Below are positions 29,257 through 30,795 of a stretch of DNA of 46,980 bases, piece after piece; the first letter of the stretch is position 1; every line of letters starts with the position of its first letter. The position numbers were made by a program, and so were the translations under genes. The stretch is taken from NCBI RefSeq assembly GCF_900605005.1, contig NZ_LR027558.1:1374263-1421242 (forward strand). Direction: 5' to 3'. The notes under the pieces were generated by a model that worked only from the letters and a program-made list of their open reading frames with translations, was not told the DNA's origin and made no database searches. This DNA is from Acidipropionibacterium timonense. Its GTDB lineage: Bacteria; Actinomycetota; Actinomycetes; Propionibacteriales; Propionibacteriaceae.

Positions 29257-29306
29257 GGTCGCAACACTTCCTGGCTGAGGACCACTTCTGCGTGGGGTCG
29301 CGTTCC

Positions 29307-29312
29307 ACTCTA
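29307..29312 (-). promoter_or_regulatory. Candidate -10 element of gdh
   Basis: On the minus strand TAGAGT would start transcription near 29300 and give gdh a leader of about 45 nt with its own ribosome-binding site. No clear -35 box is present. Confidence 0.4.
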
Positions 29313-29515
29313 ACGGGAGGCCCCGACGAGAGCCACCGGGTGACGCCCGAGGTCGAAGCCATGTCCACCTGACGGCAGGCGCCTGCTGTGGACCCGCCCG
29401 TGAGCACGATCACGCGGCCGCGTCGCCGAACAGCCCGGTGAGTCGAATCCCTCGGGCGACAGGCCGTCCAGCATCGGGCGACATGACGTCGTATGGGGCG
29501 CTGGGGACCGCCGAC

Positions 29516-29559
29516 ATGGATCAGGGGCTGGGGCCATGCGGCCCCAGCCCCTGATCCAT
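29516..29559 (-). terminator. Perfect 20-bp hairpin ending the small accessory operon
   Basis: Arms 29516-29535 and 29540-29559 are exact reverse complements around a 4-nt loop (ATGC). It lies 19 bp after the stop of the two-TM protein gene and before the gdh promoter, so it probably terminates the 30462-29579 operon and insulates gdh. No T-tract follows. Confidence 0.75.
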
Positions 29560-29578
29560 CGAGCCGACGAGGCAGGCC

Positions 29579-29815
29579 TCATCGCTCGTCCCGGAACACC
29601 GGAGATGCCATGAATGGCGTGCCCGGCTTGGATATCGCTGCCCTCAGCAGGGCTGCCAAGACGCTGAAGGCCAGCAGGCCGACGAGGCACATGAAGGTAT
29701 CCCAGTGCCCTGTCACGAAGAGAATGGCCATGACGACGAGGGAGGCCGAATAGAACAGTGCGAAGTTCGCCAGGAACCGAAGGAAAAAGTTGTCAGGGTT
29801 GATATATCTACTCAT
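29579..29815 (-). CDS. Small two-TM membrane protein, candidate immunity protein
   Basis: The 78-residue product starts MSRYINPDNFFLRFLANFAL. Two hydrophobic stretches (about residues 15-34 and 40-60) are followed by a short basic and polar tail (AISKPGTPF...VFRDER). I do not recognise a family. It starts 10 nt after the stop of the four-Cys protein, with an AGAGAGGATG ribosome-binding site, so the two are expressed together. Its size, topology and position last in an operon behind an exported hydrophobic Cys-containing peptide are what is commonly seen for bacteriocin immunity proteins. That function is inference only. Base composition is clearly lower in GC than the flanking core genes. Confidence 0.6.
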   Translation of the reverse strand: MSRYINPDNFFLRFLANFALFYSASLVVMAILFVTGHWDTFMCLVGLLAFSVLAALLRAAISKPGTPFMASPVFRDER

Positions 29816-29825
29816 TTCATCCTCT

Positions 29826-30272
29826 CTAGCACGCGTCATTGAAGTTCGGCATCGCCCCAAGTAGCCCCATCGCAACAGCGCAGGCAAACGCCGCAGGACC
29901 AGAGAACGGGACACACATCAGTGCTGAGCCAGCCAGCCAGGCAGAAAATGCAGCCCATGCTTTACCACACTTGGGCAATGAAGTGGACATGAGTACCACC
30001 CTTTGCGCCGTGGCTCCAAAGGAATCTCCCACTGCTTCACCCGGGACGAGTGCGATTGAAGGATTGCCTTCCGTTCCCGAGATTTCGAAGTGTTTGCCCT
30101 TCGTATTAATTACGAGCGCTTGTGACTGATCTTTCGTAGAAACAGCCGCGAAATAGTCAAGAGCTTCATCTGCGTTCGGCGTATATTTCTTGAGGACAGC
30201 CATGAAAGCACTGCTCTTGGCTATAAGTATTCCGCTTCCACGAGAAGTTCTGTGGATCATTATGCCTAGCAT
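29826..30272 (-). CDS. Protein with hydrophobic four-Cys C-terminal segment (bacteriocin-like)
   Basis: I do not recognise a family. The frame is open for 148 codons from an ATG at 30272; an ATG at 30203 is also possible. Neither has a good ribosome-binding site, and a stop in this frame lies just upstream of 30272. The middle part is polar (KKYTPNADEALDYFAAVS, INTKGKHFEIS). The last ~48 residues are hydrophobic and small-residue-rich with four Cys: KCGKAWAAFSAWLAGSAL, then MCVPFSGPAAFACAVAMG and a final NFNDAC. This fits a disulfide-stabilised membrane-active peptide cut from a longer precursor. The ORF lacks its own signal peptide, but one is encoded in the overlapping upstream ORF in another frame, so the two may be a single gene broken by a frameshift. 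Confidence 0.6.
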   Translation of the reverse strand: MLGIMIHRTSRGSGILIAKSSAFMAVLKKYTPNADEALDYFAAVSTKDQSQALVINTKGKHFEISGTEGNPSIALVPGEAVGDSFGATAQRVVLMSTSLPKCGKAWAAFSAWLAGSALMCVPFSGPAAFACAVAMGLLGAMPNFNDAC

Positions 30273-30462
30273 TGACGATCACATTCTTGGTCTGGCGTGG
30301 CGCGAGGCGTTGGATTCCGTCTTGCGCCGCACTCGCAGATATGGTGCGCCCTCGATCGTCTGCCTTGATTTCATGTGCCGCCGCTGCGGGGCTGTTAAAG
30401 CCAAGCATTAGGCATGCAACAATAGATGCGATACTCTTTGCTAACCCATGTGTGATACCCAT
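30166..30462 (-). CDS. Small exported protein with signal peptide; maybe the 5' half of a frameshifted precursor
   Basis: The ORF begins MGITHGLAKSIASIVACLML and continues to an AAAA signal-peptidase site (about residues 25-30), a classical Sec signal. The rest is polar (HEIKADDRGRTISASAAQ, RQTKNVIVNARHNDPQ) and ends with QCFHGCPQEIYAERR. An ATG at 30468 is too close (2 nt) to the AAGAAGGAG ribosome-binding site, whereas the ATG at 30462 has 8 nt, so 30462 is chosen. It overlaps the four-Cys ORF by 107 bp in a different frame. The last ~30 residues may not be natural: shifting frame by one base near 30240-30260 would join this signal and pro-region to the four-Cys product, giving one ~210-residue precursor. 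Family unknown. Confidence 0.55.
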   Translation of the reverse strand: MGITHGLAKSIASIVACLMLGFNSPAAAAHEIKADDRGRTISASAAQDGIQRLAPRQTKNVIVNARHNDPQNFSWKRNTYSQEQCFHGCPQEIYAERR

Positions 30463-30795
30463 TGCCATAACTCCTTCTTTCTACGTGGCAGGAGCGGGTT
30501 ACAGATTGTTTCGAGTTGGCATGTTGAGTTGTATGAGGTTGACGTAGCGGACTGCACCGGTGCTCTCTAGCCGTAAACCAGACCTCTGGCAGAGAGCATA
30601 TACCACGTCGAACCGGGTTGACCCAAGTCGACGGGGTAGCGCGGCTCATGCCCAGCTGTGCGTCACCACAAGCGATCAGATGGCTCTGGCAGCGCGGGAG
30701 CAGCACTCTCGCGCGGCAGGCAATCCCCGTTCCTCTCGCCGCCGTACTGACCGTCGTGCTAGATGTCAGACCCGAGGAGAGACCACAATGGACCC
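30463..30795. other. Intergenic region upstream of the accessory operon and DUF2505
   Basis: About 330 bp hold no convincing gene. On the minus strand TATGCT (about 30593-30598) could be a -10 for the accessory operon. A TGCTCTCT...AGAGAGCA inverted repeat spans it (30561-30598). On the plus strand GAGGAGA (30774-30780) precedes the DUF2505 start region. The rest is featureless to my eye. Confidence 0.35.
30561..30598. repeat. Inverted repeat upstream of the bacteriocin-like operon
   Basis: TGCTCTCT (30561-30568) and AGAGAGCA (30591-30598) are exact reverse complements with a 22-nt spacer. One arm overlaps a candidate -10 (TATGCT, minus strand), which is compatible with an operator. Confidence 0.5.

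What the first reader, a model, noticed from the sequence alone, without database searches (positions are those of the whole stretch)
29516..30598. Uncharacterised bacteriocin-like operon in a low-GC patch
Seen: three small minus-strand ORFs lie head to tail. One has a Sec signal peptide, one ends in a ~48-residue hydrophobic segment with four Cys, and one is a two-TM protein starting 10 nt later. They are closed by a perfect 20-bp hairpin and preceded by an inverted repeat over a candidate promoter. Known: exported membrane-active peptides (for example the SdpC type, whose toxin is cut from the C-terminus of a Sec precursor) are usually encoded with a small membrane immunity protein. Inference: this is a peptide toxin and immunity pair unlike the families I know.
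Basis: partly seen in the sequence, partly recalled or inferred. Interest (0 to 1): 0.8.

Follow-up and report, generated by a model that had tools for sequence, protein, structure and literature searches.

The report
Broken bacteriocin gene, intact immunity gene
A small foreign DNA cassette carries what looks like a secreted antibacterial peptide gene that has been broken in this bacterium, followed by a still intact gene for a small membrane protein that probably protects against the peptide; relatives with an intact peptide gene show that it belongs to a family that the searched libraries do not name.

Summary
ORF A (signal peptide) matches positions 7-82, and ORF B (four Cys) positions 76-200, of one family profile, built from relatives in which a single ORF encodes signal peptide, pro-domain and a ~50-residue hydrophobic four-Cys C-terminus. 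The window copy is therefore a frame-broken precursor gene. ORF C (78 aa, predicted two-helix hairpin) is intact. The pair lies in a ~1.4-kb low-GC insertion that 7 of 8 congeneric genomes lack there. The profile hits 23 of 198 Propionibacteriaceae genomes, two weakly, and one small plasmid. A small hydrophobic ORF follows in 23 of 25 loci (random points 29 of 919). Eleven of 25 toxin ORFs are broken; the partner stays open in 10 of these. No library family matched the precursors convincingly. Best reading: a Sec-exported pro-bacteriocin with a disulfide-braced C-terminal peptide and a two-TM immunity protein; here the toxin is dead and the immunity gene kept. Killing and immunity are inferred, not shown.

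The parts
30166..30468 (-). ORF A: 5' piece of the broken precursor gene (signal peptide and start of the pro-domain; about its last 20 residues are out of frame)
   Evidence: family HMM positions 7-82, 20.0 bits against a best of 5.6 for 200 shuffles; BLASTP against one relative alone finds nothing
29826..30272 (-). ORF B: 3' piece of the same gene (rest of the pro-domain and four-Cys C-terminal peptide); residues 1-15 are not aligned to the relative
   Evidence: 54% identity to residues 66-196 of the intact [Pseudopropionibacterium] massiliense precursor; HMM positions 76-200, 141.9 bits
29829..29981 (-). presumed toxin module: hydrophobic four-Cys C-terminal peptide (SLPKC...NDAC, 51 aa, GRAVY 0.90)
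   Evidence: four Cys columns invariant in 9 precursors; in 15 C-termini three invariant and one at 90% or more, one row having been cut short by my coordinates; composition
29579..29815 (-). ORF C: presumed immunity protein, 78 aa, two-helix membrane hairpin
   Evidence: 77% identical orthologue behind a wrecked toxin gene in G004; AlphaFold2 helices 7-35 and 38-61, block pLDDT 82-93
29516..29559 (.). perfect 20-bp hairpin, 4-nt loop, directly downstream of ORF C; possibly the transcription end
   Evidence: not called by the terminator scan
29257..30795 (.). insertion interval: gdh-start motif to DUF2505 start is 1547 nt here, 120-131 nt in 7 of 8 congeneric genomes

Best explanation
A laterally acquired two-gene bacteriocin cassette whose toxin gene has decayed. 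In intact relatives one gene encodes a Sec signal peptide, a small folded pro-domain (predicted helical, ending in a beta-hairpin), a linker often carrying basic residues, and a ~50-residue hydrophobic C-terminal peptide with four conserved Cys. Proposed working: the precursor is exported by Sec, the four Cys pair outside the cell, a protease cuts near the linker and frees the peptide, which inserts as a disulfide-braced helical hairpin into the membrane of related bacteria. The next gene encodes a two-TM protein that protects the producer from within its own membrane. In the window the precursor gene is broken by a frame change in the A/B overlap (30166-30272), so the strain probably no longer makes the peptide but keeps the protective gene. 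Shown: one-gene origin, linkage, low GC, insertion, recurrent breakage with an open partner. Inferred: export, cleavage, disulfides, killing, immunity.
For: Pieces A and B match successive parts of one family profile. Whole single-frame precursors with a signal-like start and at least four Cys in 11 of 25 loci, and one on the 3.5-kb plasmid pRGI00580. Cys conservation. An ORF of 66-109 aa with two or more hydrophobic windows starts -14 to +50 nt from the end of the toxin frame in 23 of 25 loci; the same mechanical test succeeds at 29 of 919 random flank points and, among 167 stops of long frames in the window, only at the cassette itself. Partners are more divergent than the toxin C-termini (mean normalised similarity 0.087 against 0.259) and covary with them (Mantel r 0.62, 0 of 10,000 permutations, 16 pairs). 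G006 carries the C-terminal module (profile positions 129-200) on a precursor whose N-terminal part the profile did not match, again with its own two-TM gene. ORF C: pN 0.135 against pS 0.875 to the G004 orthologue. An orphan partner (61% identical) lies in G060, with no C-terminal-profile hit in 12 kb around it, in a genome with a different whole system on another contig. Cassette GC is below flank GC in 24 of 25 loci; the sites differ between the window genome and G004.
Against: No member is known to kill anything. No protease, Dsb or regulator gene is in the cassette. Covariation is expected from linkage alone. The two-window test is lenient: one long hydrophobic stretch can count twice. 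Some partners have weak Pfam matches of another kind (Phage_holin_3_6 in 3 of 13, best E 0.0021; DUF6404 in 2 of 13, best E 0.0011), so a holin-like role is not excluded. G007 and G219 have no partner. Partner survival in 10 of 11 broken loci is not significant by itself, because the partner is less than half as long as the toxin gene and one hit per toxin would usually spare it; G104 and G105 share one sequence and are not independent. dS between window and G004 is saturated, so constraint after the break cannot be separated from constraint before it. The frame break sits in a draft assembly (15 contigs) and could be an error. The AlphaFold model of the C-terminal peptide is poor (block pLDDT 36-66, two-sequence alignment). 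The one scan of 84,980 species genomes by peptide pattern found only P. massiliense (1 of 115 candidate stretches).
Confidence: 0.72

Rival explanations
1. The window gene is not broken: the frame change is a sequencing or assembly error and the strain makes an intact pro-bacteriocin.
For: Draft assembly of 15 contigs; ORFs A and B differ only in frame, and both halves keep recognisable sequence.
Against: Breakage recurs in other genomes by different means: internal loss in G004, frame change in G089a, in-frame stop in G104/G105 and G021, frame change at the C-terminus in G093; G089 is a single-contig genome.
Confidence: 0.15
2. Programmed recoding or phase variation: the two frames are joined by frameshifting, or breaks are reversible on-off states.
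For: Eleven of 25 loci are out of frame while the partner is open in 10 of these.
Against: The breaks lie at different places and are of different kinds (stop, frame change, deletion); eleven loci are whole in one frame. A conserved slippery site was not looked for.
Confidence: 0.05
3. Not a toxin: the C-terminal four-Cys segment is a membrane anchor or signalling module and the two-TM protein is its membrane partner, or the partner is holin-like.
For: The C-terminal segments are hydrophobic (GRAVY 0.27-0.80 in 13 members; 0.90 in the window); weak holin-type Pfam matches in 3 of 13 partners; no activity data.
Against: Patchy distribution (23 of 198 genomes, two weak), low GC, presence on a tiny plasmid, partner divergence and an orphan partner fit a bacteriocin better than a housekeeping pair.
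Confidence: 0.12
4. ORF B alone, starting at ATG 30272, is an intracellular protein unrelated to export (for example an inner-membrane toxin with ORF C as antitoxin).
For: ORF B has its own ATG and is 148 aa.
Against: Its first 15 residues are not aligned to the relative or the profile, while ORF A carries the missing N-terminal part.
Confidence: 0.04

Closest known systems
PAMP, protease-activated antimicrobial peptide of Propionibacterium (Acidipropionibacterium) jensenii
   Same: Same bacterial family; precursor of 198 aa with a 27-aa signal peptide; the active peptide is the C-terminal part released by a protease outside the cell (passages of the review PMC5756557; its length of 64 aa and its being cationic are recalled). 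The last 64 aa of the G057/G060 members have mass 6386.5 (6382.4 with two disulfides) and pI 8.6, near the 6383 Da given for PAMP.
   Different: G057/G060 precursors are 189 aa (frames 196 and 195 aa), not 198. Four of 13 members come within 10 Da of 6383 (also G168a 6375 and G006 6376, with pI 4.6 and 5.5), so the near mass is weak evidence. The window's nearest whole relative gives 6548 Da, pI 5.9.
Propionicin SM1 (plasmid pLME106, A. jensenii) and the SM1-like gene of Bifidobacterium dentium
   Same: Sec precursor of 207 aa followed by a small membrane ORF (108 aa, three hydrophobic windows), GC 0.49 against 0.65 for the 6000 bases held. The B. dentium gene lies in an IS-flanked element and has a signal peptide and a TM helix (passages of PMC12104195).
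   Different: That WP_011167222 is SM1 I infer from its length and plasmid. It is a DUF2599 protein without the four-Cys tail; BLASTP finds nothing beyond chance; HHalign to the family profile gives probability 20.6%, E 0.0011 over 38 pro-region columns.
SdpC/SdpI of Bacillus subtilis (cannibalism toxin)
   Same: Toxin peptide cut from the C-terminus of a Sec precursor, disulfide, membrane immunity protein (recalled).
   Different: No hit to the SdpC model TIGR04032 in this genome, control positive; the best NCBIfam E-value among 9 relatives is 0.044, to an unrelated model; SdpI is a larger protein (recalled).
EntV of Enterococcus faecalis
   Same: Secreted bacteriocin precursor, cleaved by a secreted protease to a 68-aa form that needs a disulfide bond (abstract of PMC6606811).
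   Different: One disulfide, different phylum; its sequence was not compared here.

Membership tests
SdpC family (TIGR04032) | match to the curated SdpC model | tested here: not met
   0 of 1 genome, B. subtilis control rings; 9 relatives without a credible NCBIfam match
PAMP | 198-aa precursor with a C-terminal peptide of 6383 Da (64 aa, cationic: recalled) | tested here: inconclusive
   nearest whole relative of the window: 197 aa, 6548 Da, pI 5.9, not met; G057/G060: 189 aa, 6386.5 Da reduced, pI 8.6; G168a and G006 also within 10 Da
PAMP | sequence homology to pamA | not testable with these tools
   the two PMC papers tried are not held
Propionicin SM1 / DUF2599 | DUF2599 toxin domain | tested here: not met
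   the pLME106 protein matches PF10783 at E 7.7e-7; it is not among the six families that any of 9 members touches
Sec-dependent pro-bacteriocin with small membrane immunity protein (kind, not family) | Sec signal peptide on a single precursor with a C-terminal hydrophobic Cys peptide | tested here: met
   met in 11 of 25 loci by a hydropathy rule, no signal-peptide predictor being at hand; in the window only as two pieces
Sec-dependent pro-bacteriocin with small membrane immunity protein (kind, not family) | adjacent small membrane protein | tested here: met
   23 of 25 loci against 29 of 919 random points
Sec-dependent pro-bacteriocin with small membrane immunity protein (kind, not family) | killing activity and protection by the partner | not testable with these tools
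   needs bench work
double-glycine class II bacteriocin (PF10439) | match to the double-glycine bacteriocin model | tested here: not met
   only chance-level matches (2 of 9 members, best E 0.37); N-termini look like Sec signals

The most novel reading that the evidence does not exclude
A family of Sec-exported four-Cys helical bacteriocins without a name in the searched libraries moves through Propionibacteriaceae as a minimal two-gene low-GC cassette with exchangeable pro-domains, and its commonest fate is loss of the toxin with retention of the immunity gene, so that genomes keep a readable record of past bacteriocin exposure.
Probability: 0.45. Interest if true: 0.6.

Novelty: new variant of a known kind. 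Interest (0 to 1): 0.48.

Why it matters
No model of Pfam, NCBIfam, PHROGs (nine precursors) or PADLOC (one whole precursor and ORF B) matched convincingly, so automatic annotation probably overlooks the family. Intact copies can be tested at once, and the many broken copies beside open partner genes offer a direct test of whether strains that lose a bacteriocin keep its immunity. If the PAMP link is real, it would give that peptide a family, a conserved Cys pattern and a candidate immunity gene.

Tried and rejected
Three-gene operon: rejected, A and B are one gene. BLASTP of ORF A against the P. massiliense precursor finds nothing; only the profile shows the link. Upstream inverted repeat as an operator: at chance level. 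Phage origin: no match in 50,697 phage records (P. massiliense precursor) and none in one viral-contig scan (ORF B). ORF C has no match in the plasmid collection. SdpC and SM1 membership: rejected. Direct repeats at the insertion ends: nothing convincing. A first search with ORF B alone gave 15 of 57 genomes at E 0.1 or better, of which I judged only the window, G004 and G021 real. Class-level hit G718 has four stops inside and lies in what I read by eye as NADH dehydrogenase genes: discarded. G219 (no Cys, no partner) and G095 are probably chance; G026 is weak but has a 68-aa hydrophobic ORF behind it. The A4 profile gives a 6.2-bit match in the G060 region L028, far from the orphan partner and in its best piece only 4.6 bits, taken as chance. 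A partner profile was not searched because the partners are too divergent (A5 mean column identity 27%). Structure comparison never ran.

Dropped before counts: one search used 16 pairs; G057 (near copy of G060), G089a (copy of G074), G172 and G151 were left out by me, and G004 and G093 because the script found no whole C-terminus. In one search the script printed signal-like starts also for the window ORF B and for G093; I count both as broken, the first because that stretch lies in residues without counterpart in the family, the second because its frame leaves the family before the last Cys. G089b has no recognised signal start and is counted neither as whole nor as broken.

Full report
What is there. 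The inverted repeat upstream has only 8-bp arms and is at chance level; the promoter scan found nothing.

A and B are one gene. No Pfam or NCBIfam family matches A, B or C (best E 0.2). Searching related genomes gave a single-ORF relative: G074, identified by its named record as [Pseudopropionibacterium] massiliense NZ_LR027842.1. Its 197-aa precursor has a signal-peptide-like start, a middle domain and a four-Cys C-terminus; ORF B is 54% identical to residues 66-196. With a profile from nine members (A4), ORF A on its own scores 20.0 bits over positions 7-82 (best of 200 shuffles 5.6), and ORF B 141.9 bits over positions 76-200. The two pieces are thus the front and back of one precursor in different frames; the change lies somewhere in their overlap, 30166-30272. 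BLASTP of ORF A against the P. massiliense protein alone shows nothing, so this rests on the profile.

The family. Profile A3 hit 17 of 391 genomes of the order, all 17 in the window's own family, and 3 of 394 of the class: the window's genome, G004 and one chance match. Profile A4 hit 23 of 198 genomes of the family, G095 and G026 weakly, and 1 of 396 of the phylum, the window's own. The C-terminal profile A8 hit 23 of 197, G219 and G026 weakly. A pattern scan of the named genome collection returned only P. massiliense. Of 72,556 plasmid records one hit: the 3.5-kb pRGI00580 from an uncultured bacterium, with toxin, small membrane ORF, a CopG/ParE-like pair and an unassigned 455-aa protein. 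There was none in phages. That the family is Propionibacteriaceae follows from G074 being P. massiliense in the same family as the window; the window's species is not known to me.

The partner. In one search I examined the 25 places. A 55-115-aa ORF with at least two hydrophobic windows starts within -60 to +110 nt of the end of the toxin frame in 23 (actual range -14 to +50, 66-109 aa); not in G007 and G219. Controls: 29 of 919 random flank points, and 1 of 167 stops of long frames in the window, that one being the cassette itself. The rule is lenient, since one long hydrophobic stretch can count twice. AlphaFold2 predicts ORF C as two long helices (7-35, 38-61). Partners diverge faster than the toxin C-termini, and the two covary (16 pairs); linkage alone would give such covariation. 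Between the window and G004, ORF C differs at 49 of 56 synonymous but only 24 of 178 non-synonymous sites. Against my reading: 3 of 13 partners touch Phage_holin_3_6 (best E 0.0021) and 2 of 13 DUF6404 (best E 0.0011).

Decay. Eleven of the 25 loci have a whole precursor in one frame with a signal-like start and at least four Cys (G073, G211, G174, G183, G006, G168 twice, G074, G060, G057, G080). Eleven are broken: window, G104, G105, G021, G089a, G084, G093, G172, G004, G007, G151. G089b is uncertain; G026 and G219 are weak. The partner is open in 10 of the 11 broken loci; G104 and G105 share one sequence. This fits retention of immunity after toxin loss but does not prove it: the partner is a small target and dS is saturated. 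Stronger is the orphan partner in G060, 61% identical to ORF C, with no hit of the C-terminal profile in 12 kb around it, in a genome that has a different whole system on another contig.

Insertion. The start of the upstream gdh gene and the start of the DUF2505 gene are 1547 nt apart in the window and 120-131 nt in 7 of 8 congeneric genomes; in the eighth no gdh start was found beside DUF2505. G004 has its copy at another place, on another contig, behind a sequence that I read by eye as glycogen phosphorylase. The cassette is lower in GC than its flanks in 24 of 25 loci.

How it probably works. Sec export, disulfide formation outside, release of the ~50-residue C-terminal peptide by a protease, and membrane insertion in related cells; the two-TM protein protects the producer. 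The AlphaFold2 model of the P. massiliense precursor (two-sequence alignment, mean pLDDT 58) shows a helical domain ending in a beta-hairpin (about residues 45-130, block pLDDT 60-91) and low-confidence helices 149-163, 174-186 and 190-195 in the C-terminus. Basic residues stand shortly before the first Cys in most rows of the alignment (by eye). G006 carries the same C-terminal module while the profile did not match its N-terminal part, which suggests that the C-terminus is the working unit. All of this is inference.

Known relatives. Propionibacteria are known to make Sec-exported pro-bacteriocins; from passages of the review PMC5756557: SM1 (207-aa precursor), T1 (96-aa) and PAMP (198-aa, active C-terminal part, protease activation, 6383 Da). 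SM1 I could test: pLME106 has the same layout but a DUF2599 toxin. PAMP I could not: the two papers tried are not held. The last 64 residues of the G057/G060 members have mass 6386.5, or 6382.4 with two disulfides, but their precursors are 189 aa, and two further members of the 13 tested come within 10 Da with an acidic pI, so this is weak. I put ten queries to the held literature and saw no description of the family in the listings; that is a limited search of open-licence papers.

Verdict.

Noticed in passing
L022:1498-1737 (G060 contig 25): Orphan partner gene, 61% identical to ORF C, near what I read by eye as a response-regulator gene and without a C-terminal-profile hit nearby; the same genome has a different whole system on contig 4.
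   Followed up: partly
L082:1126-1713 and 1725-2006 (G006): Same four-Cys C-terminal module on a precursor whose N-terminal part the family profile does not match, with its own two-TM gene: possible module exchange.
   Followed up: partly
L027 (pRGI00580, 3499 bp): A tiny plasmid carrying a whole toxin/partner pair beside a CopG/ParE-like pair; the A. jensenii plasmid pLME106 (L090) is annotated with a CopG and RelE/ParE pair too.
   Followed up: no
L043/L044 (G104, G105): Two genomes counted as different species show the same cassette frames with the same in-frame TAG near the end of the signal peptide.
   Followed up: no
L073 and L086 (G168 contig 24): Two different family members about 5 kb apart on one contig; these and G183 have C-terminal tails beyond the fourth Cys.
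   Followed up: no
L090:4051-5053 (pLME106): The SM1-type gene is followed by a 108-aa ORF with three hydrophobic windows, a candidate for its immunity gene.
   Followed up: no
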